Shown piece after piece: positions 34,653-55,912 of a stretch of 64,000 bases of DNA. The position numbers were made by a program, and so were the translations under genes. The notes below the pieces were generated by a model that did not search any database, was not told where the DNA came from, and saw only the letters and a list, made by a program, of their open reading frames with translations. Source of the DNA: Chloroflexota bacterium (GTDB taxonomy: Bacteria > Chloroflexota > Anaerolineae > Anaerolineales > Villigracilaceae); NCBI GenBank assembly GCA_016195815.1, contig JACPYX010000010.1:1-64000 (forward strand). Direction: 5' to 3'. Position 1 is the first letter of the stretch; each line of letters opens with the position of its first letter.

Positions 34653-34670
34653 GAAAACAAATCCAACTCG

Positions 34671-34705
34671 ATCCCCCATGCCCAAAACGGCGTGGGGGAT
34701 TTTAA
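34671..34705 (+). terminator. Intercistronic hairpin before the HNH gene
   Basis: ATCCCCCATGCC (34671-34682) pairs with 34689-34700 with one G-U pair and a 6-nt loop, followed by TTTAATT. ATG 34725 is 24 nt beyond. Confidence 0.6.
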
Positions 34706-34724
34706 TTCCAAGATGAGGATGCCC

Positions 34725-35342: not shown

Positions 35343-36151
35343 ACGACTTGGCTTCTACCCCACAGCAAATGTTGTTGTTGAACTGCTCAAAACCTATTTC
35401 CAACCTGCCGAGACTGGTAGATTACTCGATCCGTGTGCAGGAGAAGGCACTGCAGCTTCGATTCTGGCGAGAGCTTTGAACTGCCATAGTTGGGGCGCTG
35501 AATTATCGCCTTCCCGCGCCGCGTTCGCCTTGGAAAAGATGGACCGCTTGTTCAACGCGCCCTGGCAATCCTGCCACCTGACCAACGAGTCCGTTACCTT
35601 GCTGTTTCTCAACCCGCCCTACAGCCATGATCGTCTAGGCGACCAGAAACGATTGGAGCTGGAGTTTCTGAAATCCACCACACCGAAATTGATGCGCGGC
35701 GGCGCGTTGATCTACGTCGTGCCACATCCGCTCCTGCGAGATCTGGATGTGGCTTCGCATTTGGCTGGCTACTACGAGAACATCACAGTCCATCGCTATC
35801 CCGAAACAGAATTCAATCAGGTCATCGTGCTGGCGGTGAAGCGATTGAAATTCAAGATGCCGTCCAATGAAGAGGTTCAACAAGTGCAGGCCTGGGCTGA
35901 GGTCGAGCCGCCTCTGTTGGCAGAAGCGCCCGAACCGTTGTACACGCTCCTGCCTTCTTCCGACAAAGGCGCGGGCGGGCAACCGGTCCGCTTCTCCCGC
36001 CTGGACTGGCAGTCGGAGGAGATCGTAGATGCCACACAAAAACGTGGTGTTCATTCCTCCAAGGAATGGATGGACCTGATCAATCCCTCACGCGGATTGG
36101 GGGAATTCAAACAGCCGGTCATGCCTTTGAAGAAGGGGCACATTGCGATGT
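35323..36151 (+). CDS. 5' exon: DUF6094-like SAM methyltransferase domain of a split gene
   Basis: The N-terminal part is an adenine-N6-type methyltransferase: motif I LLDPCAGEGTA (about residues 33-43), then NPPYSH (motif IV). The start is ATG 35323 (MRPPALERLGFYPTANVVVE) with AAGGATAAATACC upstream. The reading frame runs on to a TAG at 36187-36189, but its last 12 codons lie inside a group II intron whose first base is 36152. Splicing joins codon 277 (ATG T|TG) to 38546, giving KKGHIAM-LMASGMM. The 829-nt exon plus the 2,492-nt second exon make 3,321 nt, exactly 1,107 codons. This implies a single 1,106-aa methyltransferase-helicase. Before splicing only a truncated methyltransferase would be made. 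Confidence 0.8.
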
Positions 36152-36760
36152 GTGCGACACGAAGTCTCTTGAATAACTGTCTTGCGTAGTCAAGACCTGC
36201 TGTTCCATCGGCAGTACCCTAGGCGGGCATGGGAAGGTAGCAATGCCTTCTTGTGAAGCCCCGCCGACAATGTAGCCGCAGCCTCTCATGGCTGGCACTC
36301 AACTCGTGAGATAGAGTGTTTCTTGAAAGTGTCTATAGGAACGGAGCTAGGGTCTGGCAGTACGGTTAGCACATGCGAACACTTGATAAACGTCGTCAAT
36401 GTGAATGAGCCGAAGACACAAGGTAACAAGGCTCAGCCAAAAGGCAATGTAGCGAGTACAGGAGTTGCATAGTCTCCTGTCATGGATATAAAACGCTACC
36501 GGCGAAAAGAGTGAACCTAACCTGCCATGTTATTCAAGGGGAACGTGGTAAGCCCATAACTTTGCCCGCAAGGGCAGGCAAGCCGCAAGGCAAGTTGTTG
36601 AAGTTGTGGGTAAAGGAAAGCGGAAAAAGCGAATGCCGTCCTGTAATGGGATGGATAGGGACTGAGCGCAAGCGACATCATCCCGCACGAAAGCGAGCAG
36701 ACTTCCGCATGGTCTTTGATCACGAAATCGTCTGACAAACCGATAAAGGAGGTAATGCAG

Positions 36761-38461: not shown

Positions 38462-38470
38462 CAAAGGCTT

Positions 38471-38504
38471 GAGCCGGATGAGGCGAAAGTCTCACGTCCG
38501 GTTC
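38471..38504 (+). ncRNA. Group II intron domain V
   Basis: A 34-nt hairpin with GAGCCGG closing against CCGGTTC, an AGC catalytic triad in the 5' strand and a GAAA tetraloop. It is the catalytic core of the ribozyme. The next 41 nt form domain VI up to the 3' splice site. Confidence 0.9.
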
Positions 38505-38545
38505 TTAGGGGAGGGGGCGGCGGTAACGTCGCCTCCTTACCCGAC

Positions 38546-41037
38546 TGATGGCCTCGGGCATGATGGGAACACTACGGTTGAATGACGAGGATGGCAAGCC
38601 CATTCACGTGAAGGGCCGCGTGGTGAAGGTCACAGAGAAGATCGAAGAGACTACAGACAAGAAAGGCAATACAACAACTGAGGTCTTTCGAGATCGCTTT
38701 GTCTCGACGGTTGCCATCCTGCGACAGAGCGGGATCGAGATCATTGACAAAGTCGAGCCGCTCTCGAAATTCATGCACAAGTACGGTGATCAGATTGGCG
38801 CGCACATCCTGTCCACATATCGCCCGCTGTACAACTTCGATCCCACATCGGAAGAGATTGCCATCCTGGACACGTTGGGCACGAAGCGCAAGCCTCTACC
38901 CGGACAGGAAAAGCCGGGTTTGCTTCCGACACAACGTCATATCGCCGCGGGAATTGCAAGAGCGATCAAGAAGCATGGAGTGGGGAATGTGCAAGGAGAG
39001 ATGGGCGTAGGGAAAACCGTGGTAGGCGCGGCAGTTCTGGAATTGATGGATGCATATCCTGCAGTCATCCTCTGCCCGCCCCATCTGGTTCCCAAATGGA
39101 TTCGGGAGATCGAAGAAACCATCCCTAGCGCGAGAGCAATGGAACTCACGCGCATCGGACGCAATGCGGATGACCCCGGCGATGTGAATGACGTGCGCAG
39201 ATTTCTGCAACTATGCGAGGAAGGAAAGTTGGGGCAGAAACCTGTCGCAGTCATCGCCCACACCTCCGCGAAATATGGCGCCGGCTGGGAACATGCTGCG
39301 GTACGAAAGAAGTTTGTTGACGAGGAGGAATGCCGCGTGTTTGAGGCACTGACCTGCCCTGAATGCGGTTCACCCATTCAGATTGATTTGCCTGGTGGAT
39401 TGGTAACGACAGCAACCACGATAGAAGAATTGGGAGACAAGCGCCGGTTCTGCCAGGCTGAGATCACAGGCTATGAACTGAATGAACATGGACGGCTGGT
39501 GCGTGATGAACAAGGCAACCCGGTTTGGGGAAAGCGGATTTGCGGCGCGCCATTGTTCCAGTTTACCGGACGAAGATGGGCGATTGCAGACTATATTGCA
39601 AAACACCCTAGAAGGAAATTCATACTGCTCATCGCGGACGAGTGTCACCAATTTTCTGCGAAAGCCTCGGATCGAGGCATTGCATTTCACCAGCTTGTTG
39701 GTGCAACCAAATACACCTTGACTCTGACAGGCACTTTCTTTGGCGGTCGCTCGACTTCCATCTTCTGGCTGTTGCATCGCCTCAATACAGGCGTGCGGAA
39801 AGACTTCTCCTTCAACGATGAGAAACGCTGGGCGCGATTGTATGGCGTGCTGGAAACGACTCGTAAAAGTAAACGCACTGACGATGAAAGCGATGAAGAC
39901 GGTTTTACCGGCAATCGTCGCTATCAGAATCAAGCGAAGGAACAGCCGGGAATCTCGCCTGCCATCGTGAACCGCTTGCTCGATACGACTGTCTTTCTGT
40001 CGCTGAAGGATTTGGGACTGGCTCTGCCTCATTACGCAGAAGAAGTCGTGACGCTCAATATGATGGACGAGCAGGGCAAACAATATCGCTCGATGGAGAA
40101 GAAACTGCGAGACCTGGCTCTCAACAACCGCCGCTATCTCTCGACCTGGTTGCAATGGACTCTTGCCCGTCCGAACTCCGCCTTCCGCGATGAAGTCGTA
40201 GAGATTGATGAGGTAGATCGCAAAGGCGAGTTCCTGCGCAAGCGGCAGCTGATGGAGCTTCCTGCCATCGTTGACGGAAATACCATGCCCAAAGAAGGCT
40301 GGCTCGTAGACTTCTGCCGCTCCGAACGTCAGCAGGGACGCAAAGTGCTTATCTATCTGCGCCAGACGGGAACCCGCGACATTCAGGATCGCATCCTGAA
40401 AATCCTGCGAGAGGGAGGCGTGCGCACGGAGGTGTTGCACAGCGGCGTCAATCCCCGCAAGCGCGAAGAATGGATCGCCAAGCGGGTCATTGGGCTGGAT
40501 GCTTTGGTGGTCAATCCACGTTTGGTGGAGACCGGCCTCGATTTGATAGCCTTCTCCTCCGTGGTGTTCGGTGAGATCGAATACTCGTTGTATACCCTGT
40601 GGCAAGCCGTGCGCAGGGTATGGAGATTAGGTCAGACCAAACCTGTGAAAGCCATCTTCTCGGTCTACAATGACGCGATGGAGGCGCGCGCCCTGGCGTT
40701 GATGGGACAGAAGATGAAAGCGGCGCAACTCCTCTACGGGGACGAAGTGGGAGGCGCCATTGTCCCGGAAGAAGATGGCGACATCCTGATGAAACTGGCG
40801 CGCGAAGCGCTTGAGTCTGCCGACCTGCTCGATCTTCAATCTCTATTCGCCGACGAAGTCGTTGTCTCCAATTCACCGATGGGATGCCCGACGGCTACGC
40901 GCGCGCCATTGTCGGTTCCAGAGATGCCCAAAGTTGTTTCATGGGCAGACTGGATGGCTCAAAGGAGCATCGCAGTACGGTCAAACAGCCGCGGACGTTC
41001 CAGGCAGGCAGAGCAAAATCAAATCTCGTTGTTCTAA
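38546..41037 (+). CDS. 3' exon: SNF2-like helicase domain of the split gene
   Basis: Exon 2 begins TG|ATG GCC, reading MASGMMGTLRLNDEDG. The helicase has motif I EMGVGKTVV, a DECH box (IADECHQF), motif III LTLTGTFFGG and motif VI QAVRRVWRLGQTKPV, which are SF2/SNF2 features. A CxxC zinc pair (CPECGSPI) and a second (C...C near 300) lie between. After splicing it is fused to the upstream methyltransferase. As an unspliced frame it could start at ATG 38548 and make an 829-aa helicase by itself, though no ribosome site is visible in the intron's 3' end. It probably modifies and remodels the element's DNA. A terminator-like hairpin follows the stop. Confidence 0.85.
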
Positions 41038-44185: not shown

Positions 44186-44857
44186 TTATGACTTTGCAGT
44201 TTTTTTCAAATTTCCTTTATGGCAGTTTCGGATTACAGAAGCCATCTTTATTTCGAATCTATCCCAAACGTTATTATCGTTTTGTAATTCATTGCAATAC
44301 TTCCTCAGGCATAACTTCATTTGATAGCGAAATCGAGTTGAATGGACCCTCCTGTTATTCTTGTCCCACAAAGGATATTTTTCTTCTCGCGTAATTCGCC
44401 AACCATTCTTCGTTTCCGCCTGGTGTAGTATGCCGCATCGAATGCTGTCGTAAAACTCATTTCCAAGAGATTCAAACGCAGCGAATTCGCTGTAATGTTT
44501 GAAGAAATCTTCAAATACTTTACCTACATAAATTTCTTTGCCAGCTACTTTGAGTCTATGTGTGGTTTTCCAGCCATTCCGAAACGATTCCATTGCCTCA
44601 ATCATCAAGCAACTAGCCGCCATTTGAGCAAAACCGCTGTTGAAATCCGGATCGACTTTTTCAAACGGCATCAAATACCGCCTGTAGAAACGGTTGTATA
44701 CAAATTGAGCAGCTTTCTTGCGCTCTCCCTTTTGTATAAATCCATAAACTTGCTCAACAGTCTGCCCTTTGGCGGGTTCGGTTCGCTTCTCATCGTTACT
44801 CAATGATTCATAGGCTTGCTTGAGCATAACATCAGGGTCTTTGGTCCTTTTACTCAC
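44186..44857 (-). CDS. HEPN-like helical protein (223 aa)
   Basis: The segment DSIRCGILHQAETKNGW has Arg140-x4-His145, the Rx4-6H signature of HEPN RNases, in a helical protein without other domains. The start is GTG 44857 (VSKRTKDPDVMLKQ), which overlaps the upstream methylase stop and has a purine-rich GGAGGGGGAGG before it; ATG 44827 is an alternative. HEPN proteins often act as toxins cutting RNA or as partners in defence systems. The position next to an R-M-like pair suggests a defence accessory. Only the motif and helical pattern support it. Confidence 0.55.
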   Translation of the reverse strand: MSKRTKDPDVMLKQAYESLSNDEKRTEPAKGQTVEQVYGFIQKGERKKAAQFVYNRFYRRYLMPFEKVDPDFNSGFAQMAASCLMIEAMESFRNGWKTTHRLKVAGKEIYVGKVFEDFFKHYSEFAAFESLGNEFYDSIRCGILHQAETKNGWRITREEKYPLWDKNNRRVHSTRFRYQMKLCLRKYCNELQNDNNVWDRFEIKMASVIRNCHKGNLKKTAKS

Positions 44858-47800
44858 CCTCCCCCTCCTCCCCAGCGGACGCGCCCATCCGATACTTGAC
44901 ATCATAATTGATGATGAAATCCAACTCCTCATCACTCAGCCCGTAGTGACGCGCCAGCGCGCGATCGATCTCGTCTATGATCGGCTTGGATAAATCCCAG
45001 TCAAATTCTTGAAATTCAGTAGGGCCTCGGTGGTTGACAAAAGAGTTCCTATTGAAGTCTTTCATCAACTCATCAAACAAATCACCCACAATCTTAAGTG
45101 TCTCTTTTTCTGGTTTTCCCAACGCAAAGGTTTTGACATCTTCAAGTGTTAAGTTTCTGCAATTCCCCATAGCAAAGAAATGGAAAAAGTATAAGGTGCT
45201 GTTTACCACTGCACCGATAAATTTGTTGTAAGCCAAATCTGAAACTGACAATTCCCGCGTGTGAAATATTGACCTATCACCTGTTGGCGCTTTGTAATAC
45301 GGCAGAAAATCCATCATCCTTATCCAGTAGCCTGGCGTACGATGAAAATAGAGTTTATGCTTGCTTTCGTTTACCAAGTGCAACGCGATAAGATCGGATT
45401 TGACGCTTGATATCTTCCCCAAAACACGAGTTGCAATATCACTACCGGATTTGGGGATTAGGTTCTCGTTAGCCAAAACAGTTATGTCACTGTAAGTAAT
45501 TTTCTCGAAGAGTGTAGGACGCTCATCTTTGAACCATTGATTGTATTTGGTTGAGTATGCTGTTTTCTTTGAGCCTTTCTCTCTGTTTACAAGACAAATG
45601 GTTAAACGTTGTTCGACGCCTTCAAAAAGTTTTGCAGGACGAATAGCATAGTTGCTGAACCAAGAACTTCCTTGATTTAGAAGCATTCGTCTTACGACAT
45701 AGTTATCTGGAACGCTAACAAGCGATATTGGAACAATTAAACCAAGTCTCGAGTCGGATGAAATCAACTGCAAAGATCTTTCAATTACATAAACGTACAG
45801 GTTTTCAGATTCTTCTGTTTTGTAATCTTGTACTTGGTAAGTTGAGCGAACTTTTCTATATTCCACATAAGGCGGGTTACCAATAATCACGTCGAACCCA
45901 CCCTCATTCATAATGCCGAAGAACTCCACAAACCAATGGAACGGCGTGTGCGACTCAAGCCACTTTTTATAATCTTCACCTTTGGGGTTGTGGATGGCAT
46001 ACTGCTTTGCCAGAAGGACGTTTAATTCCTTTTCCAATTCGCCCAGGCGCTTTTGTAGTTCACGCTTGTCTTCGGGGCGCACTTCACCGCCGAACTCGGT
46101 CTGTTGCTGGCGGAAGAGTTTATACAGCCTGTCTACATCTTCGGCTTTCTCTTCAATGCGTTTTAGTTGTGCATCCTCTTCTGGCATGGCAAAAAGTTTC
46201 TCGGACTGAACCCCGCCCACCGTCCCGAATTGAACCGAGCGTTTTACATCCTCCCGCGTGGCAAAGCCCACCAGCGTGTTCCCGGCGCGGATGTTAAAGT
46301 CAATATCGGGCAGGGGCTCGATCCCCAAATTCTCCTTCGAAGCGTCTGGCTCCACCTGCGAAGCCAGTTTCAGGAACAGGCGCAGTTTGCAAATTTCCAC
46401 CGCCTCTTCCATGATATCCACGCCGTAAAGGTTGTTGATGATGATGGACTTGAAGATAAAGTAATCCTCATCGGGGCGCTGGCGCACCTGCTCCAACGCC
46501 TTGCGGAACGGCTCATACTTTTTAGGGCTGTGCTTCTCCCCTGAGCGGTCGAGCTCCTCCACCAGCGCGCTCATGCGTTCCAGGCAGGCTTCATAGAGCG
46601 GCTCCAGCACGTTCAACGCCGCAAATAGGAACGCACCCGAACCCACAGTGGGGTCAAGGATCTTGATCTGCGTGAGCGCCTTCCAGAACGCCGCCAACAG
46701 GTCGGCATCGCTGTCTTCGATCACATCCTGCGCGAACTGACGGATATCGAGATTAAGCGTGATCAGGTCGTTGATGGACCTGACTTCGCCCTTCGCCAGT
46801 TTTTCCTTTACTTCCTGATAGCGACGGCGGCGGGCGACCACCTCACGCCAGATTTCGGTGGGCAAAGCGAATTCTTCTGGAGCAGGCTCGTTCCACCCCT
46901 CCCGCCGCTTCGGATCAGACTCACCGATAGCGATTTCCGTTGGTAAAGCATTCCCTACCCCATAGCGGACTGCCGCGTAAATATAGCGATCTGGGTCAGC
47001 CTGCAAATGCCGCCAAACAGAACCATCTCCTTCAAAGGCGATCTTGCATTCCTTTTGCGCTACATCGAAGAGATAGGGAATGATGGTGTTCTTGGTGATG
47101 TACTCGGTAATATCTTCCTTGGTATAGTACGCGCCCATTTGCTTCTGGTTGATGTATTTCTCGAAGATATACCCCAGCACATCGGGGTTGATCTCGTTAT
47201 CGGCTTTATTCGGGCGCTCATCTAAATGCCAGCGATAGTCGTCGAAGAAAGCGAACAACTGCTCGAAGGCTTTATCAGGAACTTGGATTTTCTCTCCGTA
47301 CATCTCTTCGATCTGATGTCGCTCGAAGATACCGCCATTTAAATATGGGATGTTCCCAAGCAGTTTCTTTGTCTCCGCATTGTGTTTTTTCTTGGCAAAT
47401 CCATCGAAGAACAACGGGCATAGAAAATCGCTATAGAATAGATCCTTGCCCTTCTTCTTGCTCTCTTCCAAATGGTGACGCAGATAATTCGGGTCATTTT
47501 CCAAAAACTGTTTCTTCTGGATGAAGTAAATGAACATCAAACGATTTAGTGTCACCGAGACATACCAACGCTGCATTTCCTTATCTGGAATGCCTTTGAT
47601 AAATTTCAGGAAGGCAGTATGCTCATCCTGAAAACGGTCATAAAATTTCTTAGTTACCTTCTCGACATCAAAAGCTTGTTTTAACCGTTGCCCAACCTCT
47701 ATGATTGTCAGATCCTCTTCTTCATCAAGTTCGAAGATAGCGGACTGAAGTCGTTGCAAGATAATTTCCGTTTTATCGTATTCCCTACGGGCAATTGGCT

Positions 47801-48128
47801 TGTTTGGTTCGCGGCGGACCCACTGCCATTTTTGGGTTGTCTTATCTCCATTGGTGAAGATGATCAAATGCTCGTGCGCGAGTTTCCGCACCTGAGTTTC
47901 GATCTTGGCGCGTAATGAGGAATCAGGAATAGATCCATCGGGCATGGGCGAGCATACAAACGCGGCCAACCCGCGTTTCTGCGCCACCATCGTCAACTGA
48001 AAATGTTGGCCGTCAACTTGGATCTCGGATGTCTGTTTGGCAAGATCCCATCCCATCTTCTCGATGAATAGTTTTTTTAGATCGAATGCCTGTAAATCCC
48101 TACGGGTCTGAATAATACTGAATGGCAT
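44850..48128 (-). CDS. Eco57I-type DNA methyltransferase, restriction-modification protein (1092 aa)
   Basis: The core is an N6-adenine methyltransferase of the Eco57I/type IIG group: MGAYYTKEDITEYITKNTI (about 330-348), motif I LDPTVGSGAFLFAALN (about 490), and NPPYVEYRKV (about 749). A long N-terminal region (1-320) carries positions where type IIG enzymes have an endonuclease domain, though no confident PD-(D/E)XK set was found by eye. The C-terminal part is a target-recognition-like region. ATG 48128 has AGGAGGTGATA directly upstream. It follows the PLD-SNF2 helicase gene by 12 nt, so the two form one operon, probably recognising and cutting or modifying foreign DNA. Confidence 0.85.
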   Translation of the reverse strand: MPFSIIQTRRDLQAFDLKKLFIEKMGWDLAKQTSEIQVDGQHFQLTMVAQKRGLAAFVCSPMPDGSIPDSSLRAKIETQVRKLAHEHLIIFTNGDKTTQKWQWVRREPNKPIARREYDKTEIILQRLQSAIFELDEEEDLTIIEVGQRLKQAFDVEKVTKKFYDRFQDEHTAFLKFIKGIPDKEMQRWYVSVTLNRLMFIYFIQKKQFLENDPNYLRHHLEESKKKGKDLFYSDFLCPLFFDGFAKKKHNAETKKLLGNIPYLNGGIFERHQIEEMYGEKIQVPDKAFEQLFAFFDDYRWHLDERPNKADNEINPDVLGYIFEKYINQKQMGAYYTKEDITEYITKNTIIPYLFDVAQKECKIAFEGDGSVWRHLQADPDRYIYAAVRYGVGNALPTEIAIGESDPKRREGWNEPAPEEFALPTEIWREVVARRRRYQEVKEKLAKGEVRSINDLITLNLDIRQFAQDVIEDSDADLLAAFWKALTQIKILDPTVGSGAFLFAALNVLEPLYEACLERMSALVEELDRSGEKHSPKKYEPFRKALEQVRQRPDEDYFIFKSIIINNLYGVDIMEEAVEICKLRLFLKLASQVEPDASKENLGIEPLPDIDFNIRAGNTLVGFATREDVKRSVQFGTVGGVQSEKLFAMPEEDAQLKRIEEKAEDVDRLYKLFRQQQTEFGGEVRPEDKRELQKRLGELEKELNVLLAKQYAIHNPKGEDYKKWLESHTPFHWFVEFFGIMNEGGFDVIIGNPPYVEYRKVRSTYQVQDYKTEESENLYVYVIERSLQLISSDSRLGLIVPISLVSVPDNYVVRRMLLNQGSSWFSNYAIRPAKLFEGVEQRLTICLVNREKGSKKTAYSTKYNQWFKDERPTLFEKITYSDITVLANENLIPKSGSDIATRVLGKISSVKSDLIALHLVNESKHKLYFHRTPGYWIRMMDFLPYYKAPTGDRSIFHTRELSVSDLAYNKFIGAVVNSTLYFFHFFAMGNCRNLTLEDVKTFALGKPEKETLKIVGDLFDELMKDFNRNSFVNHRGPTEFQEFDWDLSKPIIDEIDRALARHYGLSDEELDFIINYDVKYRMGASAGEEGEGE

Positions 48129-48140
48129 TATCACCTCCTA

Positions 48141-51100
48141 TTAAGCCAAACCCAATGAACAAATAATTTTGGGTTCATGTTTTTCCACATCAGCCTCAGT
48201 AATACACAACCGGTCATCGGCGCGAAGGTTCACAACTAATTCTGCCAATTCATGCGTCGAAATGCCTGTTCGCATTTGGCGATTGAGAATATCCTTTGCA
48301 TATTCACGCAACGGGAAGCGATAAATCTCGTCAATTGCTTTGAGCAAGTCAGGTGTGACGAATAATGTACCTTGATTTTGGTCCATGAAATTCTTGAGCC
48401 GTTCATAGGCACGGAAGCGCGCACCAGAGGGACGGCCGAGTTGCCCACCGACCGCTTTTTCCTCCTGCGAAATCTTTTCGACACCCTGGCGAACCAGTTC
48501 ATGATGGTTGGGCTGACGTGGTAGAGCAGGAGTATCGAGCGCACATTCGGCGGCTTTTAGGATTTCGTATTGCGACTCGGTTACACTGCCGCTCTGCGTG
48601 TCAATCCATGCCAGCGCATCATTGTCTTCGCCTGTCCGAACATAGATCAGTGCGCCCTTGGGGTTTTCGGAAATCTTTTTGGTTGAGAACGCAACATCGG
48701 GTAGAGATGGAACAACCTTTTGCAATTGAGGATCACTATCTATTGCATTCTTCCAAATTTGATAGGCATAAGAAGCCAAGTCAACTTCGGTATCGGCATC
48801 TTCGCCGTCCAGGATGCCTGCCTTTTCGTTATACAGGTCTACGATTACTTGCTCGTTGTCGTCGTCCTCGAAAAAGGCTTCATCCGAGCCGACCACCTCA
48901 GCATTTTCTTTCAATCTTCTCCGCAGACGGTCGCGCAGGCGGATGATGGTTTCCACACCCTCCGCCGGAAGGAAAGTGTGTGCATCAATCGCGCTTGCCT
49001 TTTGCCCAATTCTATCCACGCGTCCTACGCGCTGAATCAATCGGATGATTGCCCAAGGCAGATCGTAATTGACAACTACGGAACAGTCTTGAAGATTTTG
49101 ACCTTCGCTAAGAACGTCAGTTGCAATCAAAACGCGTATTTCATCTTCCAGCTTGATAACATCACGCTTTTCATTGCTTACCGGGCTGAAGCGCCATGCC
49201 AATTCCGTCGGGTCGTAAGAGTTGCCTGTAACGCCGGCAACTGCCTCGACGCCGCGGTTCTGAAGTTGTTCTTCGAGATAATGCACGGTATCTGCATATT
49301 GTGTAAAGATCAGAACCTTTTGCGTGGGGTACCCTTTCTTTACCAGTTTGACAAGCTCTTCCAGTTTGGTATCTTTGGTTGGGTCCCAACTCCCGCTTTT
49401 ATTAAGGATCTGAATTAAGGTGTCTGCATCTTCACGTAAATGTTTTGCAAGAGTATCTTTGAAGATAGATGTGCTGATCCAGTCAAATCGCTTTCTGAAG
49501 TGGGTGCGATACTGTTCATAGACTTTTTGAGCTTCGCGTTTGAAGTCATCCTCGGTTCGCAAACCGCTTTTGACTTCTGCTTCGGTCTCCTCCGCCTCTT
49601 CATCCACTTCATTGCTTGTGGTATCGAACATATCGCCAAGATCGCTGTCTTTGTCTTCATCTTCAAAACGAGCATCCAGCAAGGCAGGTTCTTGGGTTCC
49701 GATCGGCAAAGGCAGATTGTTTTTCAGAGCATACAGGAAGATGTGATTCCGAAGAATGTGTCTCTCCACGGAGAGCAGAAAAGAATAGCCACTGCTCTCT
49801 AGCCGCTTGAATAAGTTAGTTCGCGAGAATCCAATCAGGCGTTTTCCAGCTCGTGAAAGATCGCCTAGCAGTTTCTTTTCCCTATCGCTTAGATTATTGT
49901 CTTTGTTGTTTACATAGATATCTTGACCTAATCCATAACGAGGCAGTTTCATCTTGCTAATGGCGTCCACGGCCTTTTCATCGTAAAGACGAACATATTG
50001 GTCACTTGGGTCTTTCTTGTTTAATTTAAACTTGACCGTCTTCGGTTGGCGTTCGGGAAAATACGATTTTTCACCATTCTCAAACAGCAAATACTTGCGC
50101 CCTTGTTCATCTGCCTTTGCGTAGTTAGTTTTAATGAAACTGCGCGTGCGACGCACCATGTAGAGGCGCATCAGTTCCTGCCAATCAGACGGATGGGGAC
50201 TTTTCTCGAAAGCAGCCAACGAGTGAATATCAGCCTGATATTGGCGAATGAATTCTATCTCGCCGATTTCGCGCAACAATTGTTCAGGTCGAACGGTCAA
50301 TTTTTGATCTTCAGGAATGAATAACCGCAATTGATTGGAAAGATCAATGTAGCCCTTGTTGTAAGGCGTTGCCGTTAGCAGGACGACTTTACTTTCATTG
50401 TGCTCGATGTAATCTCGAACGGCGCGATAACGCTTGCCCTCGCGATTGCGCAGATTATGACTCTCGTCAATGATGACGAGTTTGTAACGGCGTAGCTTCG
50501 GAAGCTCCTTGATTGCTCGACTTATAGAGAGAACATCTGCGTGCATGCGATAAGTTGAACGGTAACTATTCCACATCTTGACGAGATTCTTGGGGCAGAT
50601 GATAAGAGTGTCGTAGCCGCGCTCATCAAAGACTCGTGAAATGGCAGTTCCCACCAAGGTCTTACCAAGCCCTACCACGTCGCCGATCATTACCCCGCCG
50701 CGCCGTTCAATATGGTGAGCAGCGATTTTTACAGCAGCGGCTTGATAGGGCATTAATTTGGATAGATCACTTGGTATATTGAATTCTGATAGACCTGCAC
50801 GCGCTTCCTGAGATAGGTGATATGCCATCTTCAAGTATATCTGATAGGGTGGAATCGGCTCTTCTCTCGCCCACGATTCATCAATGACCTTGATTAGTTC
50901 CTCTGTTATATCGATCGTTCCAAAATCATCTTCCCAGCGGTTTCTGAACCATGTGGCAAGTTTCTGGCTGGCATCGCCGTCCAAGACATCAATGTTCAAT
51001 TCACCTTGATGTGATAAGCCCGCCAAAGTCAAATTGCTGCTTCCCAAGAAGCCGATGATCGGGTTGAATTTATCCTCTCGAAATAGAAGATAGAGTTTTG

Positions 51101-51518
51101 CATGCAAAGGATGCTTCAAGAATAATTTGACTTGTACTTTTCGCAACCGAAGTTGCTCTGCTAGTTTACGGAGGGAAGATTCGTCTTCATTACTCGGTGC
51201 GCCGAAAGTCAATTGTTCCCGGAACTCCTCAGCAAGTTTCTTCTTTAGCCTTATCTTGGTTGGATTGTCTAATTCTTCTTGGCCAGTGGCGAAAGAGTAA
51301 TATCCCCTCAGTTCGTCTTGGGGCAACTTCTGCATGCCTACTAATAGACGGACGCAATGATTGTCGCCCCCTTCCCATTGATCGACATAATTGGCGAGCT
51401 CCTTCCATCCCCGAAGATTGAAATACCCCACGCAAAAATCGGCGCGGTATGACGCGACTATTGCGTTTTGCAAGTCGGGGAGAAGCCGTAGCTCAATGTT
51501 ATCGAAAATCCGTGGCAT
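48141..51518 (-). CDS. PLD nuclease - SNF2 helicase protein (1125 aa)
   Basis: An N-terminal phospholipase D-like nuclease has its HxK motif in HAKLYLLFRED (about 138) with GFLGSSNLTLAGL (the N/S motif) after it. Then an SF2/SNF2 helicase: Walker A VVGLGKTLV (about 277), DEAH-type IDESHNL (about 346), and C-terminal motif VI QRVGRVDRIGQ (about 826). This domain order occurs widely with Eco57I-type methylases in genomic islands; the pair is thought to be a restriction system in which the helicase tracks DNA and the PLD cuts. The operon order PLD-helicase then methylase is seen here. The start ATG 51518 is the only good one. It is not a complete DISARM or BREX set because their core genes are missing. 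Confidence 0.88.
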   Translation of the reverse strand: MPRIFDNIELRLLPDLQNAIVASYRADFCVGYFNLRGWKELANYVDQWEGGDNHCVRLLVGMQKLPQDELRGYYSFATGQEELDNPTKIRLKKKLAEEFREQLTFGAPSNEDESSLRKLAEQLRLRKVQVKLFLKHPLHAKLYLLFREDKFNPIIGFLGSSNLTLAGLSHQGELNIDVLDGDASQKLATWFRNRWEDDFGTIDITEELIKVIDESWAREEPIPPYQIYLKMAYHLSQEARAGLSEFNIPSDLSKLMPYQAAAVKIAAHHIERRGGVMIGDVVGLGKTLVGTAISRVFDERGYDTLIICPKNLVKMWNSYRSTYRMHADVLSISRAIKELPKLRRYKLVIIDESHNLRNREGKRYRAVRDYIEHNESKVVLLTATPYNKGYIDLSNQLRLFIPEDQKLTVRPEQLLREIGEIEFIRQYQADIHSLAAFEKSPHPSDWQELMRLYMVRRTRSFIKTNYAKADEQGRKYLLFENGEKSYFPERQPKTVKFKLNKKDPSDQYVRLYDEKAVDAISKMKLPRYGLGQDIYVNNKDNNLSDREKKLLGDLSRAGKRLIGFSRTNLFKRLESSGYSFLLSVERHILRNHIFLYALKNNLPLPIGTQEPALLDARFEDEDKDSDLGDMFDTTSNEVDEEAEETEAEVKSGLRTEDDFKREAQKVYEQYRTHFRKRFDWISTSIFKDTLAKHLREDADTLIQILNKSGSWDPTKDTKLEELVKLVKKGYPTQKVLIFTQYADTVHYLEEQLQNRGVEAVAGVTGNSYDPTELAWRFSPVSNEKRDVIKLEDEIRVLIATDVLSEGQNLQDCSVVVNYDLPWAIIRLIQRVGRVDRIGQKASAIDAHTFLPAEGVETIIRLRDRLRRRLKENAEVVGSDEAFFEDDDNEQVIVDLYNEKAGILDGEDADTEVDLASYAYQIWKNAIDSDPQLQKVVPSLPDVAFSTKKISENPKGALIYVRTGEDNDALAWIDTQSGSVTESQYEILKAAECALDTPALPRQPNHHELVRQGVEKISQEEKAVGGQLGRPSGARFRAYERLKNFMDQNQGTLFVTPDLLKAIDEIYRFPLREYAKDILNRQMRTGISTHELAELVVNLRADDRLCITEADVEKHEPKIICSLGLA

Positions 51519-51715: not shown

Positions 51716-53107
51716 CTATTTTGCTAGCATGGTCAAAGTTGGCAAGGAGGATAGATCGCCGAAACCCTTCACTTTCTGGCAAATACAATTCCTGTCGAAA
51801 TTCGTTGTCCCCCTGCTAGATATTCCTGTTAGGAAATCATAACGGATTCGACTGATTTCTCCGGTGTCGCCCATAAAATTCGTAAACAGGTGAATAAATA
51901 AGGAGACCGCGGAACTTGCCACGCTTGTTGTAAAACTTATTACCGCCGGTGTCTTGGAATCAATATCCTCGACATATCCTTGTTGGAGCAAGTGTCGTCG
52001 CTCTTCAATCGGCATGCTTTCTGCTGCAATTCTTTCGGATCGGAGAAATTGCTTACACCACAGGCAGGGCTTATCCGGTCGAAGAACATCCACTGCGCCT
52101 ATTGCATGAGAAATCACGCCATCATCAGACGAGATTCGGACGCCAAGATTGATGGTGGGAATCATGTACTGATAGGCAATTTGGTTGACGATAGACCGCC
52201 CCCAATGTTCATCGGTGCTGAGAAAGAGGACGTCTCGATCCAGTAGCAGCGAGGCTGTCTTGCTTAGCACCACATTTTGATGTACTGCACGAATCTGAAC
52301 ATTTGGATTTATTCTTCGTAGATTGGAAGCAATTAGGTTGACCTTATGCTCGGAGAAGAGTCTCGATTTCCTTACTGACCCATAATAGCTCCCATAGACG
52401 CGAGATAGATTTGTTGGAGAAAATTTATCAGGGTCAATCAGTATAAGATCCAAAACTCCCAAGCGCACCAATTGTTCGGCGATGGGTGAACCTGTTCCCC
52501 CTAGCCCAATGATGCCCACCTTGGCACGGGAAATAGCCAATTGCCCATCTTTCCCAAACGCTCTTACTTGGCGGTCATACAAATCCAGTTTGGTTGAATC
52601 GGTTGGAACCTTTTGCAATTCGATTTTTTGAATGTGGTGTCCTATCACAATGATCTCGTCCAGGTTGATGGGCTGGGATTTATCTGCAAGCCAAATCCTG
52701 CCTGTTACATTGTCCGGGGTAAATAACAGACTTGCTATGGGTGCTTTTGCTGGAATGAATGGGCGAAGGGTATCCGCAATCCTTCCCTCCCCATAATCAT
52801 CAGATTGTGAATACCTTAGCCCACTTGGATGACTATGACATATTACTGCCCCTAACTGGTTCGCATCACACAAGGCAATCAAGCCATTAATAGCCTGAGG
52901 TGCAACTTCAAGGCGATATTCGTTTTGAACCATCATCATGTGTTTGGGTACTGAAATTGGTCGTCTTATGAGAATATCTGTTTCATCGCCATATTCAGCG
53001 ATTCCTGCCAATGCAAATGCTCCCGCCTCATCTGGTAAATCAATCAAAACCATATGGCGTAGTCTATCGAAATCCTCACGCGAGATCTTTAACCTGTATT
53101 TGCTCAT
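51716..53107 (-). CDS. JAB deubiquitinase-E1 fusion (ThiF/MoeB superfamily, 463 aa)
   Basis: The N-terminal JAB/MPN domain (about 1-145) has a metal site HSHPSGLRYSQSDD (His91, His93, Ser100, Asp103) with an acidic residue at about 27. The C-terminal E1-like domain starts at about 175 (YDRQVRAFG) with the ATP loop GLGGTGSP (201-208), LILIDPDKFSPTNLSR (nucleotide Asp and Arg), and a Cys4 zinc site made of C348, C351, C441 and C443. No further Cys is present after residue 91, so no classic thioester Cys is available. The fusion lets one protein both process and activate the small Ubl. Its ATG overlaps the E2 stop (ATGA). It is the last gene of a three-gene operon. Confidence 0.9.
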   Translation of the reverse strand: MSKYRLKISREDFDRLRHMVLIDLPDEAGAFALAGIAEYGDETDILIRRPISVPKHMMMVQNEYRLEVAPQAINGLIALCDANQLGAVICHSHPSGLRYSQSDDYGEGRIADTLRPFIPAKAPIASLLFTPDNVTGRIWLADKSQPINLDEIIVIGHHIQKIELQKVPTDSTKLDLYDRQVRAFGKDGQLAISRAKVGIIGLGGTGSPIAEQLVRLGVLDLILIDPDKFSPTNLSRVYGSYYGSVRKSRLFSEHKVNLIASNLRRINPNVQIRAVHQNVVLSKTASLLLDRDVLFLSTDEHWGRSIVNQIAYQYMIPTINLGVRISSDDGVISHAIGAVDVLRPDKPCLWCKQFLRSERIAAESMPIEERRHLLQQGYVEDIDSKTPAVISFTTSVASSAVSLFIHLFTNFMGDTGEISRIRYDFLTGISSRGTTNFDRNCICQKVKGFGDLSSLPTLTMLAK

Positions 53108-53493
53108 TGGTTGCTCTTCCCAGCTCTAACAAGACCGTAGTTTACAAACTCCAAATACATATACAAGTTTCCAGTTCCAGGATTCCAACCTTGAGGATGC
53201 CAAGAAAACTTCCGCCACTGTTGATCTAGGTGATTTTCAAGCGAATCTGCATTAGTAGGAGTCCGTCCATCTGCACACAACAAGTCTGGCGCTGTCCAGA
53301 ACATATCTGGGTTGCCGTTTGGATATGATATGGGTATCCGTAACAGCAATATGGTGCTTTGTTTGTTATACATTGGAGGCAGTGGATAATCATCCAATAT
53401 TATGTTTGCAAACCCGTCCGTTTCGATCAATTCCACTTTGTAGCCGGCCTCTCTCAGACCCGCAATTTCTTGAAGCAGGATGTCGGTCAACAT
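53104..53493 (-). CDS. Prokaryotic E2-like protein, family E type (129 aa)
   Basis: The start is ATG 53493, 1 nt after the Ubl stop; an ATG at 53577 would begin inside the Ubl gene. The protein reads as an E2/UBC-fold domain of the prokaryotic type E: LLRIPISYPNGNPDMFW (about 50-66), LCADG (Cys73), WRKFSWH (93-99) and WNPGTGNL (103-110). The pattern YP-pDmf...W+.-SWH...WnP is typical of that group, in which the canonical catalytic Cys position is often replaced. Here one Cys (73) follows the PDLL strand, and it may or may not be catalytic. Its stop overlaps the JAB-E1 start (ATGA). It would take the Ubl from E1 and attach it to targets. Confidence 0.8.
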   Translation of the reverse strand: MLTDILLQEIAGLREAGYKVELIETDGFANIILDDYPLPPMYNKQSTILLLRIPISYPNGNPDMFWTAPDLLCADGRTPTNADSLENHLDQQWRKFSWHPQGWNPGTGNLYMYLEFVNYGLVRAGKSNQ

Positions 53494-53494
53494 C

Positions 53495-53734
53495 TTAGCC
53501 GAAGGTTCCTGGAGGCACAACGCGGTAGCGTTGACCATTTTTAATTTGAACAGGCGCGGTAATCTGAATATCGTCAACTGGCAACTGACCCTCCGGGTCC
53601 GGCGATTTGTTGATCAACCACACCTCATAGTCGCTTGGAGCCCCCAACGCATCTCTGAAATCCTGTGGAGTAAGTTCGGACTTCTCGAAGTGGTACGGTT
53701 TTTGGTTGATATGAATAGTGATTTTCTTCGTCAT
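53495..53734 (-). CDS. Ubiquitin-like protein (multiubiquitin-type, 79 aa, C-terminal Gly)
   Basis: The start at 53734 (MTKKITIHINQKPYHFEKSE) has TTAGGAGAAATATC before it; an ATG at 53779 lies before that site and is rejected. The fold pattern is that of multiubiquitin domains: a first strand ITIHINQ, a helix TPQDFRDALG, DYEVWLINK, and a last strand RYRVVPP. The last residues are PPGTFG and the gene stops right after Gly79, so the Gly could be adenylated by E1 without processing. A JAB protease in the operon may still cut conjugates. First gene of the operon. The stop lies 1 nt before the E2 start. Confidence 0.85.
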   Translation of the reverse strand: MTKKITIHINQKPYHFEKSELTPQDFRDALGAPSDYEVWLINKSPDPEGQLPVDDIQITAPVQIKNGQRYRVVPPGTFG

Positions 53735-53834: not shown

Positions 53835-53897
53835 TTAATACCGACCTGTTCTGAATTTTTGCCATTTTGACCAAAAACTGGAGGACGGCGGTATTAA
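53835..53897. promoter_or_regulatory. Two outward-facing CGGTATTAA elements between the Ubl and sigma operons
   Basis: CGGTATTAA occurs at 53889-53897 on the plus strand and at 53843-53835 on the minus strand. Each copy points to its own operon, about 100 nt (Ubl) and 123 nt (sigma) before the start codon. An AAAAA tract stands 11-12 nt upstream in both arms. The symmetry suggests one factor, perhaps the neighbouring sigma factor, drives or represses both. It could instead be a simple inverted operator. Confidence 0.45.
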
Positions 53898-54020: not shown

Positions 54021-54665
54021 TTGAACGAGAAGAAAAGACAGCTTCTAAATGATTTTCCGTGGGAGGAAACCTACCCCAAACTTGTGGCGTTTGCGGAGTG
54101 GGTTATTCAAGGGAAGAACTGGAACTCCGGTGTTCTTCCCAAGGGACAAACTGCGGAAACCATCGTACAAGATGTGATTGCGAAGACCTTCAGTGAGAAG
54201 CGGAATTGGGACCCTGAAAGGGGGGACTTGCTCGATTGGTTGAAATGGGTGATCAGGAGCGAAATCAGCCACTTAGCGGAATCGTCTGCAAACAAGCGTG
54301 ACATACATCTGGATCACCTCAACGACAATGACCCTGCGGTTGCCAGAATGGAAGACATGGTGAACCGCGAGTCTCGCGTCAGGCCCCAGGCTAACTCTCC
54401 CGAAGAAGCCATGATTGCGGTGGAAACTGAAGATGAATTAATGGCTTCTGCTGGGTTGAGAATCGATTCATTGTTGGAAGCGTGCAGTGGAAAACCTGAA
54501 CTTGAAGAGATTGTTTATGCTATATGCTATGGTAAATGTTCTGCTAAACCACAAGACTTGTCCAAATGTCTGGGCAGGCCAATCAAAGAAATAAATCAAC
54601 ATCTGCGGGCGTTGCGGCGAAGAGCATCCAAAATAAGAATAGAGGCTGAAAATGGACGAGAATAA
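54021..54665 (+). CDS. Sigma-70/ECF-like sigma factor (214 aa)
   Basis: Region 2 is seen in TAETIVQDVIAKTFSEKRNW and RGDLLDWLKWVIRSEISHL, with the helices and aromatic residues that open the -10 element in ECF sigma factors. Region 4 appears at the C-terminus (PQDLSKCLGRPIKEINQHLR, ALRRRASKIRI), an HTH that would read the -35 region. The start is TTG 54021 after GGGAGGTTATT. Between the regions lies an acidic linker. It opens an operon with an unknown protein and an ImmA/IrrE protease and is divergent from the Ubl operon. The unusual central insertion lowers my certainty; the protein could be a related DNA-binding regulator. Confidence 0.7.
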   Translation: MNEKKRQLLNDFPWEETYPKLVAFAEWVIQGKNWNSGVLPKGQTAETIVQDVIAKTFSEKRNWDPERGDLLDWLKWVIRSEISHLAESSANKRDIHLDHLNDNDPAVARMEDMVNRESRVRPQANSPEEAMIAVETEDELMASAGLRIDSLLEACSGKPELEEIVYAICYGKCSAKPQDLSKCLGRPIKEINQHLRALRRRASKIRIEAENGRE

Positions 54666-55098
54666 ATCCAAGAGAACTGATTTGGAAATCGCGAACGAAT
54701 TCAACCGCTTGTTCGATGAAATTCCGGAACCGGAAACCGACGAGGAAATCCTGGAATTCTTGGTGGAATCCGGATATGACCCTGAAACTCTAAAGACTCA
54801 AGGCGGGGAGTTTATAAACAACTTAATAGCCACAAACTGGCGCTTTGTTTCTTCAAATGATATTGATGAAGCCGTAACCAAAATTGACGATGTGCCCATT
54901 CGGAAGGAATGGAGTCGCGGCCAATTAACGAATGCGATCCAAAAATTGTCGGCCTCCCTTGCTTTCGGCGGAAAGCAACCCTCACTGGCTTTCCGCAACC
55001 TAGAAGAATTAACCGACTCCGATTTAGCAGTCATCCTCCAGGAACTTGAGTACAAAGCCCGCGCTAGCGGAATTGATTTTGATCTGAGTCAAGGTTAG
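54652..55098 (+). CDS. Unknown acidic protein between sigma factor and ImmA protease (148 aa)
   Basis: The start overlaps the sigma gene by 14 nt and the stop lies 1 nt before the protease gene, so all three are co-translated. The protein is acidic with an N-terminal helix (DLEIANEFNRLFDEIPEPE) and a mixed C-terminal half ending ASGIDFDLSQG. No family is recognised. Its position between a sigma factor and an ImmA-type protease suggests it is an anti-sigma factor or the protease's substrate; no direct evidence is visible. Confidence 0.6.
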   Translation: MDENKSKRTDLEIANEFNRLFDEIPEPETDEEILEFLVESGYDPETLKTQGGEFINNLIATNWRFVSSNDIDEAVTKIDDVPIRKEWSRGQLTNAIQKLSASLAFGGKQPSLAFRNLEELTDSDLAVILQELEYKARASGIDFDLSQG

Positions 55099-55099
55099 G

Positions 55100-55912
55100 A
55101 TGAGTTCAGCTGAAACAATTGCGAACCTGGTCCTAGACAGACTTGACATTTCTAGGGTAGACGATCTTTTGCTGTTGAAGGAAATTGTTTATGCACGTGG
55201 TGCTATTCTCCGAGAGTATGAGTTGAAAGGAGCTGAGGCGTGTCTATTGGTGGGGCCTGGCAGACCAATCATTACTGTATCATCCTCGCCTTTAATCAGC
55301 CATCATCGCCGGCGTTTTTCCATCGCACATGAACTTGGTCATCTTGAAATGCATCGAGGCACTGGTTTGCTGATGAACTGCACAAAAGGCGATATTCAGG
55401 ATATGCCCAATGACTCAGGTGTTGATACTGAACAGGAAGCTAATCAATTTGCTTCGGCTTTTTTGATTCCAGCCAGATTTGTCGAAAAGCCATTCATCGA
55501 GAGCGAACCCTCTTTCGACATTATTTCTGATTGGGCAATGCGCCTTGATACATCCCTAACCGCGACCACATTTAGCTTTACGCGATTTACACCTGAGCCG
55601 GTGGCTGTTGTATATTCTGTCCGAGGCATCATCCAGTATTTTCAGCCTTCCCCAGCATTCACTGAACTTGGTGTTTTTCCTGATGTAAAAAAACCAGTAG
55701 GAACAAACACCGATGCGAGAAGATTATTCAATGGCATAGACATAAAGAGTGAGTGGCACGAAGTAAGAGCCCTTGAATGGTTCCGTGATAACAAGGATGC
55801 CTTTGATAAAACTGATGTGATTCGGGAATGGTCGGTCAATATGCCATCGTATGAGGCCGTTTTGAGTCTTATATGGGTACATAAACCTCTTGGGGAAAAT
55901 GATGATTGGTAA
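55100..55912 (+). CDS. ImmA/IrrE-family metalloprotease (270 aa)
   Basis: The zinc motif HELGH is at residues 77-81 in FSIAHELGHLEMH, with the third ligand in the following EQEANQFASAFLIPARFV (typical of ImmA/IrrE, which end the core with EANxFAxxLLxP). Members such as ImmA of ICEBs1 cleave a repressor to trigger element transfer; IrrE controls radiation response. A helical C-terminal half (about 140-270) may sense a signal. Here it is in an operon with a sigma factor and an unknown protein. It might release the sigma factor upon stress or phage attack, switching on the divergent Ubl operon. That link is inference. Confidence 0.9.
   Translation: MSSAETIANLVLDRLDISRVDDLLLLKEIVYARGAILREYELKGAEACLLVGPGRPIITVSSSPLISHHRRRFSIAHELGHLEMHRGTGLLMNCTKGDIQDMPNDSGVDTEQEANQFASAFLIPARFVEKPFIESEPSFDIISDWAMRLDTSLTATTFSFTRFTPEPVAVVYSVRGIIQYFQPSPAFTELGVFPDVKKPVGTNTDARRLFNGIDIKSEWHEVRALEWFRDNKDAFDKTDVIREWSVNMPSYEAVLSLIWVHKPLGENDDW

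What the first reader, a model, noticed from the sequence alone, without database searches (positions are those of the whole stretch)
51716..53734. Compact ubiquitin-like conjugation operon: Ubl, E2-like protein and a JAB-E1 fusion
Three tightly overlapped minus-strand genes encode a multiubiquitin-type Ubl ending exactly in Gly79 (PPGTFG), an E2-like protein of the prokaryotic type E, and one protein carrying both a JAB peptidase and an E1 adenylating domain. Operons with E1, E2, Ubl and JAB parts are known in bacteria (Bil/Bub-type, antiviral), but this version fuses E1 to JAB and uses a 79-aa single-domain Ubl with an exposed Gly. It sits next to a defence island.
Basis: partly seen in the sequence, partly recalled or inferred. 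Interest (0 to 1): 0.88.

Follow-up and report, generated by a model that had tools for sequence, protein, structure and literature searches.

The report
Bacterial ubiquitin operon with sigma switch
These genes make a small bacterial version of the ubiquitin tagging machinery of a recently described kind (Bub), and beside them sits a three-gene switch, a sigma factor, a small partner protein and a damage-sensor type protease, that recurs beside bacterial immune operons in other phyla and may be a new way of turning such systems on.

Summary
Window 51716-53734 (-) encodes a 79-aa ubiquitin-like protein ending in Gly, an E2 of Pfam Prok-E2_E (4.9e-19) and a JAB-E1 fusion. The fusion, however, is not what sets it apart: the closest solved relatives are Citrobacter BubCD (also JAB-E1; 4.8e-28) and BubB (8.7e-6), so this is a minimal member of the known Bub pathway. 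The E2 has Ser97 at the likely nucleophile position (Ser 21, Cys 3 of 24 E2s); no catalytic cysteine is visible in E1 or E2.

Divergent from the operon, 54021-55912 (+) holds an ECF-type sigma factor, a 148-aa protein and a CapP-type protease. I found these three genes in 22 distinct loci, facing Bub genes in 9, CBASS in 3, a ThiF/MBL-like operon in 1, TIR/pAgo genes in 1, other or unknown genes in 8 (sampling not random). CapP is reported as an ssDNA-activated protease that cleaves the repressor CapH; here a sigma/small-protein pair stands in CapH's place, and matched promoter pairs face both operons at about half of the loci tested. I propose that CapP destroys an anti-sigma factor and frees a dedicated sigma. 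This is inferred, not shown; nor is an antiphage role of Bub.

The parts
53495..53734 (-). bubA: single-domain ubiquitin-like protein, 79 aa, C-terminal Gly79 already exposed
   Evidence: fold; relatives ending in FG or FGR
53104..53493 (-). bubB: E2-fold protein (Prok-E2_E), Ser97 in the motif F-S-W-H
   Evidence: 4.9e-19; PDB Citrobacter BubB 8.7e-6; Ser/Cys column
51716..53107 (-). bubCD: N-terminal JAB peptidase fused to a C-terminal E1 adenylating domain, 463 aa; zinc-type cysteines 348, 351, 441, 443
   Evidence: (PDB Citrobacter BubCD)
53836..53864 (-). candidate sigma-dependent promoter facing bubA: TGGCAAAAA-N12-CGGTATTA
   Evidence: p 0.057: suggestive only
53868..53896 (+). candidate sigma-dependent promoter facing the sigma gene: TGACCAAAA-N12-CGGTATTA
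   Evidence: p 0.057: suggestive only
54021..54665 (+). ECF-type sigma factor, 214 aa (regions 2 and 4); start codon TTG as listed
   Evidence: Sigma70_r2 5.9e-5, 23.2 bits, cut-off 24; TIGR02937 5.5e-6, 26.1 bits, cut-off 42.9; relatives; fold
54652..55098 (+). 148-aa protein of an unnamed family, proposed cytosolic anti-sigma factor and CapP target; overlaps the sigma gene by 14 bases
   Evidence: no Pfam match at 0.01 and no PADLOC match at 0.01; family alignment
55100..55912 (+). CapP-type metallopeptidase (HELGH), 270 aa
   Evidence: PADLOC capP 1.1e-46, nearly full length; Peptidase_M78 1.1e-12

Best explanation
A Bub operon held under a dedicated sigma-factor switch. (1) Bub part: the E1 domain of BubCD adenylates Gly79 of BubA; BubA passes to the E2 BubB, most likely as an ester on Ser97 rather than a thioester, and then to target proteins; the JAB domain removes BubA from targets (it has nothing to trim beforehand here, since Gly79 is already terminal). 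(2) Switch part: the 214-aa sigma factor drives both the bub operon and its own operon from matched divergent promoters; the 148-aa protein holds the sigma factor inactive; the CapP-type protease, activated by single-stranded DNA, cleaves the 148-aa protein and releases sigma. DNA damage or phage replication would thus turn conjugation on by activation, where the known CapH-CapP pair does it by removing a repressor. Shown: gene content, homologies, conservation, recurrence of the trio; fold matches at modest confidence. Inferred: the ester intermediate, promoter use, the anti-sigma role, the cleavage and the trigger.
For: Bub: PDB BubCD and BubB matches; Prok-E2_E; E2 column Ser 21, Cys 3 of 24 distinct E2s (four of them the window group), His two residues on in 19 of 24; no cysteine in BubCD outside the JAB part and the zinc-type sites. 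Sigma: TIGR02937 5.5e-6 for the window over model positions 11-160 of 165; of 10 trio sigma proteins not used to build my profiles, all match TIGR02937 (2.2e-8 to 0.076, 8 of 10 below 0.001) and all 42 family rows listed at E 0.1 or less are sigma-factor models; 49 of the 50 Foldseek rows shown look like sigma factors, best E 0.011; VIA-align Z 8.4 to SigH and 8.1 to RpoE (83 residues, 3.0 A). The gene is annotated sigma-70 in four plasmid loci. Trio: profiles built from 10 loci found sigma and small protein in all 15 further loci with a trio-type CapP (CapP profile E 2e-62 or better) and in none of 35 loci with more distant CapP-like peptidases, some of these near-copies. CapP tree: 23 trio rows on one side of a branch (95/93), 8 others on the opposite side. 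Promoters: matched divergent pairs with p 0.010 or less in 9 of 20 intergenic regions, 1 of 8 CapH-CapP controls; in the window's genome the motif occurs without mismatch only at these two places in 3.16 Mb (pattern made from them). Purifying selection on all six genes against L026 and on five against L029. CapP activation by ssDNA and cleavage of CapH: PMC13373217, passages.
Against: In the window's own group the promoter pair is only suggestive (p 0.057, 0.061, 0.330 in the three distinct sequences) and lies 99-124 bases from the start codons, further than in most other loci. Six of 20 trio intergenic regions gave p above 0.08, Pontibacter (Bub-associated) 0.630. Matched inverted elements could be repressor operators. 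All sigma family scores shown are below NCBI's curated cut-offs; none of 6 distant members has a Pfam sigma match; Foldseek had no match at E 0.001. The sigma profile also rings in two ordinary ECF genes without a CapP (L054, L058). The PADLOC capP model is unspecific (match in 123 of 251 genomes and 4 of 14 controls), and two Chloroflexota proteins without sigma or small-protein matches score better with it (G199, G177; 6.5e-54, 2.4e-50) than the window's own. No direct evidence that the 148-aa protein binds sigma or is cut. The Ubl model has low confidence. In L029 capP is frameshifted.
Confidence: 0.68

Rival explanations
1. The operon is a Bub operon, but the trio is a repressor-type switch: the sigma-like protein (or the 148-aa protein) is a DNA-binding repressor that CapP removes, as CapP removes CapH.
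For: Trio and CapH-CapP-type pairs occur in the same position, divergent from Bub and CBASS (trio; pairs). Matched inverted elements between divergent genes are also what a repressor operator looks like. Sigma scores are below curated cut-offs.
Against: Every NCBIfam match of 10 trio sigma proteins is a sigma-factor model and the fold rows are sigma factors. The matched elements are two blocks; the downstream block ends 14-34 bases before the sigma start in 14 of the 17 trio regions outside the window group, as a promoter would, though in 4 or more of these the pair itself is not significant. The 148-aa family shows no similarity to 9 CapH-type proteins.
Confidence: 0.22
2. The three genes are a sulphur-carrier or cofactor module (ThiS/MoaD-like protein, ThiF-like enzyme, JAB protease), not a protein-conjugation system.
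For: ThiF is the best Pfam match of the E1 domain; many NCBIfam ThiF/MoeB models match it below cut-off.
Against: An E2-fold gene lies between; the best solved relatives are BubCD and BubB; the Ubl ends in FG, not GG; no cofactor-synthesis gene among the neighbours identified; the genome has two other ThiF-type genes (26 and 28% identity).
Confidence: 0.03
3. The trio is an independent regulator of mobile-element functions that merely travels next to defence operons.
For: In the window group the trio and bub genes lie beside the same conserved right-hand genes; 8 of 22 trio loci have no recognised defence operon facing the trio; most of the others are on plasmids.
Against: 14 of 22 trio loci face Bub, CBASS, ThiF/MBL-like or TIR/pAgo genes, three of these loci having been fetched because a ThiF match was on the same plasmid; matched promoters face several of those operons.
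Confidence: 0.07

Closest known systems
Bub (bacterial ubiquitination-like) pathway, Citrobacter BubA-BubB-BubCD (PDB 9ea4, 9ea5, 9ea8, 9eae, 9eav)
   Same: Ubl, family-E E2 and JAB-E1 fusion in one operon; sequence match over E1 and part of JAB, and over most of E2; weak fold match of the Ubl.
   Different: Single 79-aa Ubl with free C-terminal Gly, whereas a structure title gives Citrobacter BubA residues 155-229 as a part of a longer protein. No DUF6527 gene follows, as it does in several other Bub-type operons. Controlled, I propose, by a sigma trio rather than CapW, CapH-CapP or CapK-CapS.
CapH-CapP immune-operon regulator
   Same: CapP-type protease (PADLOC capP 1.1e-46), divergent from Bub or CBASS.
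   Different: No HTH repressor gene; a sigma-type protein and a 148-aa protein of another family take its place; trio CapPs form a separate group.
CapK-CapS immune-operon regulator (EMBO J 2026, PMC13373217, passages)
   Same: DNA-damage control of Bub and other immune operons; borrowed sigma-regulation parts (anti-sigma kinase and STAS antagonist).
   Different: CapS is itself the DNA-binding repressor; no sigma factor is part of it in the passages seen.
ECF sigma/anti-sigma pairs released by proteolysis, such as sigmaE-RseA (mechanism recalled)
   Same: Sigma gene followed at once by a small partner gene; sigma-E/RseA, SigW/RsiW and RpoE/NepR complexes are among the fold rows.
   Different: No membrane segment seen by eye in the 148-aa protein; the protease gene is in the same operon and of the CapP type; the motif was found at only two adjacent places.

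Membership tests
Bub pathway | JAB-E1 fusion related to BubCD | tested here: met
   4.8e-28 to PDB BubCD over residues 73-406
Bub pathway | E2 of Prok-E2_E type related to BubB | tested here: met
   Pfam 4.9e-19, PDB BubB 8.7e-6
Bub pathway | Ubl of multiubiquitin/BubA type | tested here: inconclusive
   no PF14452 match; low-confidence model whose best second-look rows are BubA/multi-ubiquitin, Z 3.8 or less
Bub pathway | E2 without catalytic cysteine, Ser in its place (recalled as a property of the published pathway; seen in no paper here) | tested here: met
   Ser97; column Ser 21, Cys 3 of 24
Bub pathway | covalent conjugation of BubA to targets | not testable with these tools
   needs protein chemistry
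Bil system | E1 and JAB as separate proteins (recalled) | tested here: not met
   E1 and JAB are one protein
CapH-CapP regulator | CapP-type peptidase, full length with HExxH | tested here: met
   PADLOC capP model positions 4-241 of 242; HELGH; the model is unspecific at weak scores
CapH-CapP regulator | HTH repressor CapH as partner | tested here: not met
   partner genes are sigma-type and a 148-aa family without similarity to 9 CapH-type proteins
ECF sigma factor | sigma regions 2 and 4 | tested here: met
   TIGR02937 positions 11-160 of 165 at 5.5e-6, below its curated cut-off; 10 of 10 relatives match the same model; fold rows for both regions
ECF sigma factor | promoter recognition with core RNA polymerase | not testable with these tools
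   matched promoters are consistent only
Anti-sigma factor (148-aa protein) | binds and inhibits the sigma factor | not testable with these tools
   position and co-occurrence only

The most novel reading that the evidence does not exclude
[quoted passage not shown] Bacterial immunity would then be switched on by activating transcription, with a built-in positive feedback loop, in at least three phyla.
Probability: 0.58. Interest if true: 0.75.

Novelty: new variant of a known kind. Interest (0 to 1): 0.62.

Why it matters
What triggers Bub operons, and what they are for, is open. A dedicated sigma switch with a damage-sensor type protease would say when they are used and give a clean way to turn them on in the laboratory: express the sigma factor alone. 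It would add an activation-type, positive-feedback switch to the three damage-responsive regulators described in the paper seen here, all of which work by relieving repression. The trio is also a profile that can be used to find unknown immune operons. The E2 with Ser, or in a few relatives Cys, at one position invites a direct test of ester against thioester chemistry.

Tried and rejected
Plain Foldseek with the Ubl model gave nothing useful; phmmer of the Ubl against the PDB gave only three chains of one unrelated-looking membrane protein at 0.034 or worse. The first promoter-pair statistic let palindromes in and did not discriminate; I replaced it by one that forbids overlap; block lengths and spacer range were my own choice. 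The motif NGTCSG-N14-20-GCMYR was read by eye from the sequences, so it is independent only for the 7 loci fetched later (L156-L162): both strands in 3 (P. marcusii, a close relative of Celeribacter; B. septentrionale; S2214), one strand in 2, none in 2. Over all 20 regions it is on both strands in 10, on one in 2, on none in 8 (window group included), and in 0 of 8 controls. Viral contigs: BubCD patterns matched nothing, the window CapP gave two weak matches, a CapP alignment gave 24 loci of which two have the trio. The Fuscovulum CapP matched no phage record. tblastn of single sigma and 148-aa sequences in plasmids found nothing but the query's own record. In about 300 genomes of the window's phylum single queries found the 148-aa protein in 2, sigma in 7 and CapP in 18 of 301, mostly at weak scores. 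A link of the left-hand helicase and type IIG gene to the operon was considered and dropped. Literature: no paper describing a sigma/CapP module was seen in searches (listings and starts of abstracts only; two listed 20 of 103 and 12 of 28 papers) or in the passages of PMC13373217. The library lacks the Bub papers themselves and most subscription journals, so this is weak evidence of absence.
Full report
WHAT IS THERE. Three minus-strand genes lie at 51716-53734: a 79-aa protein ending PPGTFG, a 129-aa protein and a 463-aa protein. The first two are one base apart and the last two overlap by four bases. The 129-aa protein is Prok-E2_E (4.9e-19). The 463-aa protein has a ThiF/E1 domain (5.3e-31) and, before it, a JAB domain that Pfam finds only below its cut-off (0.0082) but whose JAMM-type residues are present (H91, H93, S100, D103 or D104; positions). 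The 79-aa protein has no Pfam match above chance.

WHICH SYSTEM. Against solved structures the 463-aa protein matches Citrobacter BubCD (4.8e-28, residues 73-406) and the 129-aa protein matches Citrobacter BubB (8.7e-6). The Ubl model is weak (pLDDT 61.3), yet five of the seven chains that the second-look aligner scored at Z 2 or more are bacterial multi-ubiquitin proteins or BubA (Z 3.8, 3.7, 3.7, 3.4, 2.6); plain Foldseek was not significant. The operon is therefore a small member of the Bub pathway. BubCD is already a JAB-E1 fusion, so the fusion is not a novelty. The papers that define Bub (Ye et al. 2026, Gong et al. 2025) are not held; I saw them only as references in PMC13373217, of which I read passages, and in passages of PMC12687455.

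CATALYSIS. A Ser/Cys exchange at one conserved position beside a His is what a nucleophile looks like. BubCD has six cysteines: 80 and 90 in the JAB part, and 348, 351, 441, 443, which sit where most other Bub-type E1s aligned have paired zinc-type cysteines (the Pontibacter one lacks them). No catalytic E1 cysteine is visible. I recall, without having been able to check it, that the published Bub pathway is described as using a serine ester. The Ubl C-terminus is already Gly79; an Acidobacteriales relative ends FGR and would need trimming, a Mesorhizobium one ends FG.

DISTRIBUTION. Of 101 genomes (own plus relatives up to the order), four carry this version (G000, G040, G044, G059; 88-100% identity) and two loci carry a relative of about 30% (one a second copy in G044, one in G073). 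Prok-E2_E was found in 8 of 301 genomes of the window's phylum. In plasmids, 234 records have an E1-domain match (61 of them over at least 80% of the query) and 75 an E2 match at E 0.01; not all of the former are Bub. The four orthologous loci share bubA, bubB, bubCD, the three divergent genes and the genes to the right (82-92% identity), while the left flank differs. Compared with L026 all six genes, and with L029 five, show dN/dS 0.06-0.19; capP of L029 is frameshifted.

THE DIVERGENT TRIO. At 54021-55912 (+) three overlapping or adjoining genes face away from bubA. The third is a CapP-type peptidase: PADLOC capP 1.1e-46 over nearly the whole model, a model that at weaker scores rings in many ImmA/IrrE-type genes (123 of 251 genomes, 4 of 14 controls). 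The first is sigma-like: Pfam Sigma70_r2 5.9e-5, 0.8 bits short of the cut-off; NCBIfam sigma70-ECF 5.5e-6 over model positions 11-160 of 165, below its curated cut-off, with 5 of the 8 first family members matching at E 1 or less; of 10 further trio sigma proteins all match that model (2.2e-8 to 0.076; 8 below 0.001) and all 42 rows listed are sigma models. On the other side, none of 6 distant members has a Pfam sigma match. Foldseek's rows shown are nearly all sigma factors, best E 0.011, none at 0.001; the second-look aligner gives Z 8.4 (SigH; rmsd 26.5, so the domains lie differently) and 8.1 (RpoE region 2; 83 residues at 3.0 A). The model's mean pLDDT is 65.7. The second gene belongs to a family without a name.

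RECURRENCE. tblastn with the CapP protein in plasmids led to loci with the same three genes in Bacteroidota, Alpha- and Betaproteobacteria. Profiles built from ten loci (four of them the window group) then found sigma and the 148-aa family in 15 further loci: 12 plasmid loci (L108, L109, L111, L112, L113, L156-L162), one genome of the window's phylum (G125) and two viral-collection contigs (L132, L133). Two are weak: in L112 the small protein scores 0.009, and in L133 the sigma match is a 48-aa fragment. In all 15 the CapP profile scores 2e-62 or better; in 35 loci with CapP-like peptidases scoring 5.9e-34 or worse (some near-copies of each other) neither partner was found. E-values refer to small sequence sets. 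The sigma profile also hits two ECF genes without CapP (L054, L058). Of 26 plasmid records with a trio-type CapP at 1e-20 I looked at 16, all with the trio. A tree puts 23 trio CapPs on one side of a branch (95/93) and 8 others on the other. The 148-aa family (24 sequences aligned) shares a C-terminal stretch with A[AF]R in 22 of 24, followed by a D-rich helix-like segment, and no similarity to 9 CapH-type proteins.

WHAT THE TRIO FACES. Counting the window group once, 22 trio loci: Bub genes in 9 (window group; Pontibacter; Celeribacter 70; Paracoccus marcusii 102; Pseudosulfitobacter 103; Paracoccus SCSIO 107; Aestuarium 49, 128, 130; viral contig L133 with E2 and E1 fragments, 128; Spirosoma with a Multi_ubiq protein only, no E1 or E2 match in the 7.3 kb held, 46, 128, 130); CBASS in 3 (Cereibacter 73, Roseivivax 104, Bradyrhizobium septentrionale 106; cyclases confirmed); a ThiF gene with an MBL-like neighbour in 1; TIR/ThsB and pAgo genes in 1 (G125); other, interrupted, unknown or off the contig in 8 (Polaromonas with an IS, Azospirillum, Bradyrhizobium barranii, Fuscovulum, Sagittula, S2214, Novosphingobium, L132). 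Three of the Bub loci were fetched because a ThiF match lay on the same plasmid, so the proportion is biased upward. HTH-plus-peptidase pairs of the CapH-CapP type occupy the same position beside Bub and CBASS.

PROMOTERS. The intergenic region carries TGGCAAAAA-N12-CGGTATTA towards bubA (53836-53864) and TGACCAAAA-N12-CGGTATTA towards sigma (53868-53896). In the four orthologs both CGGTATTA blocks are invariant, and so is the 21-base stretch TTTGCCATTTTGACCAAAAAC that holds most of the two upstream blocks. Searching the whole 3.16-Mb genome for the shared pattern gave these two places without mismatch, none with one, and five with two mismatches (control pattern two); the pattern was made from these two sites. 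A test for matched, non-overlapping divergent element pairs against 1000 shuffles gave p of 0.010 or less in 9 of 20 trio regions, 0.038-0.061 in 5 (window 0.057, L026 0.061), and above 0.08 in 6 (L029 0.330, Pontibacter 0.630, Pseudosulfitobacter 0.085, Paracoccus SCSIO 0.239, Bradyrhizobium barranii 0.081, Spirosoma 0.108); among 8 CapH-CapP-type controls one gave 0.003 and seven 0.155 or more. The most telling case is Celeribacter, where the bub operon and the sigma gene have GTCCGATGGGC...TCGGGAGCATA in both directions (p 0.001). The window, L026 and L029 are not independent, nor are Celeribacter and P. marcusii.

HOW IT PROBABLY WORKS. A sigma factor with a tightly linked small partner and a CapP-type protease, facing an immune-type operon through matched promoters, is best read as sigma, anti-sigma and releasing protease. 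From PMC13373217 (passages): CapP is activated by binding ssDNA and cleaves the repressor CapH; 219 of 544 Bub operons have CapW or CapH-CapP and 59 have CapK-CapS; Bub has not been shown to protect against phage. None of the passages names a sigma-containing module, and paper searches listed none that I could recognise. The trio would be an activation-type counterpart, with positive feedback. Steps shown: content, homology, recurrence, conservation; fold at modest confidence. Steps inferred: binding, cleavage, trigger, promoter use, ester chemistry.

VERDICT. As an operon: a new, minimal member of a known pathway. As a regulated unit: a new variant of a known kind, the more interesting part of the find.

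Noticed in passing
window 44850-51518 (-): Type IIG restriction-methylase (PADLOC score 1064.6) and a PLD-SNF2 helicase left of the operon; the left flank differs in three orthologous loci, so this looks like a variable cargo slot (inference).
   Followed up: partly
window 36716-38461 (+): Group II intron reverse transcriptase with maturase and HNH domains.
   Followed up: no
L028 6997-10727: Genome G044 holds a second, about 32% identical Bub-type operon with an HTH gene and an ImmA-type peptidase behind it, near relatives of other window genes (33174-41037).
   Followed up: partly
L029 11149-11960: In G059 the capP gene is broken by a frameshift, while bub, sigma and 148-aa genes stay intact.
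   Followed up: no
L010 1032-1448, L130, L131: Three E2 relatives have Cys where the 21 others have Ser in the S-x-H motif.
   Followed up: no
L063 5081-8991: A ThsB-like TIR protein, a TIR-type Argonaute partner and a short pAgo lie divergent from a sigma trio in genome G125.
   Followed up: partly
L108 2406-3677: An IS256 transposase sits between the E2 and E1 genes of the Celeribacter Bub operon.
   Followed up: no
L071, L113, L116, L117, L162: Small proteins (DUF3892, DUF2188 and unnamed 92-aa ones) recur beside both sigma trios and CapH-CapP-type pairs; possible unknown immune or toxin genes.
   Followed up: no
window 51716-53107, residues 441-443: The second zinc-type cysteine pair of BubCD is C-x-C, where most aligned relatives have C-x-x-C.
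   Followed up: no
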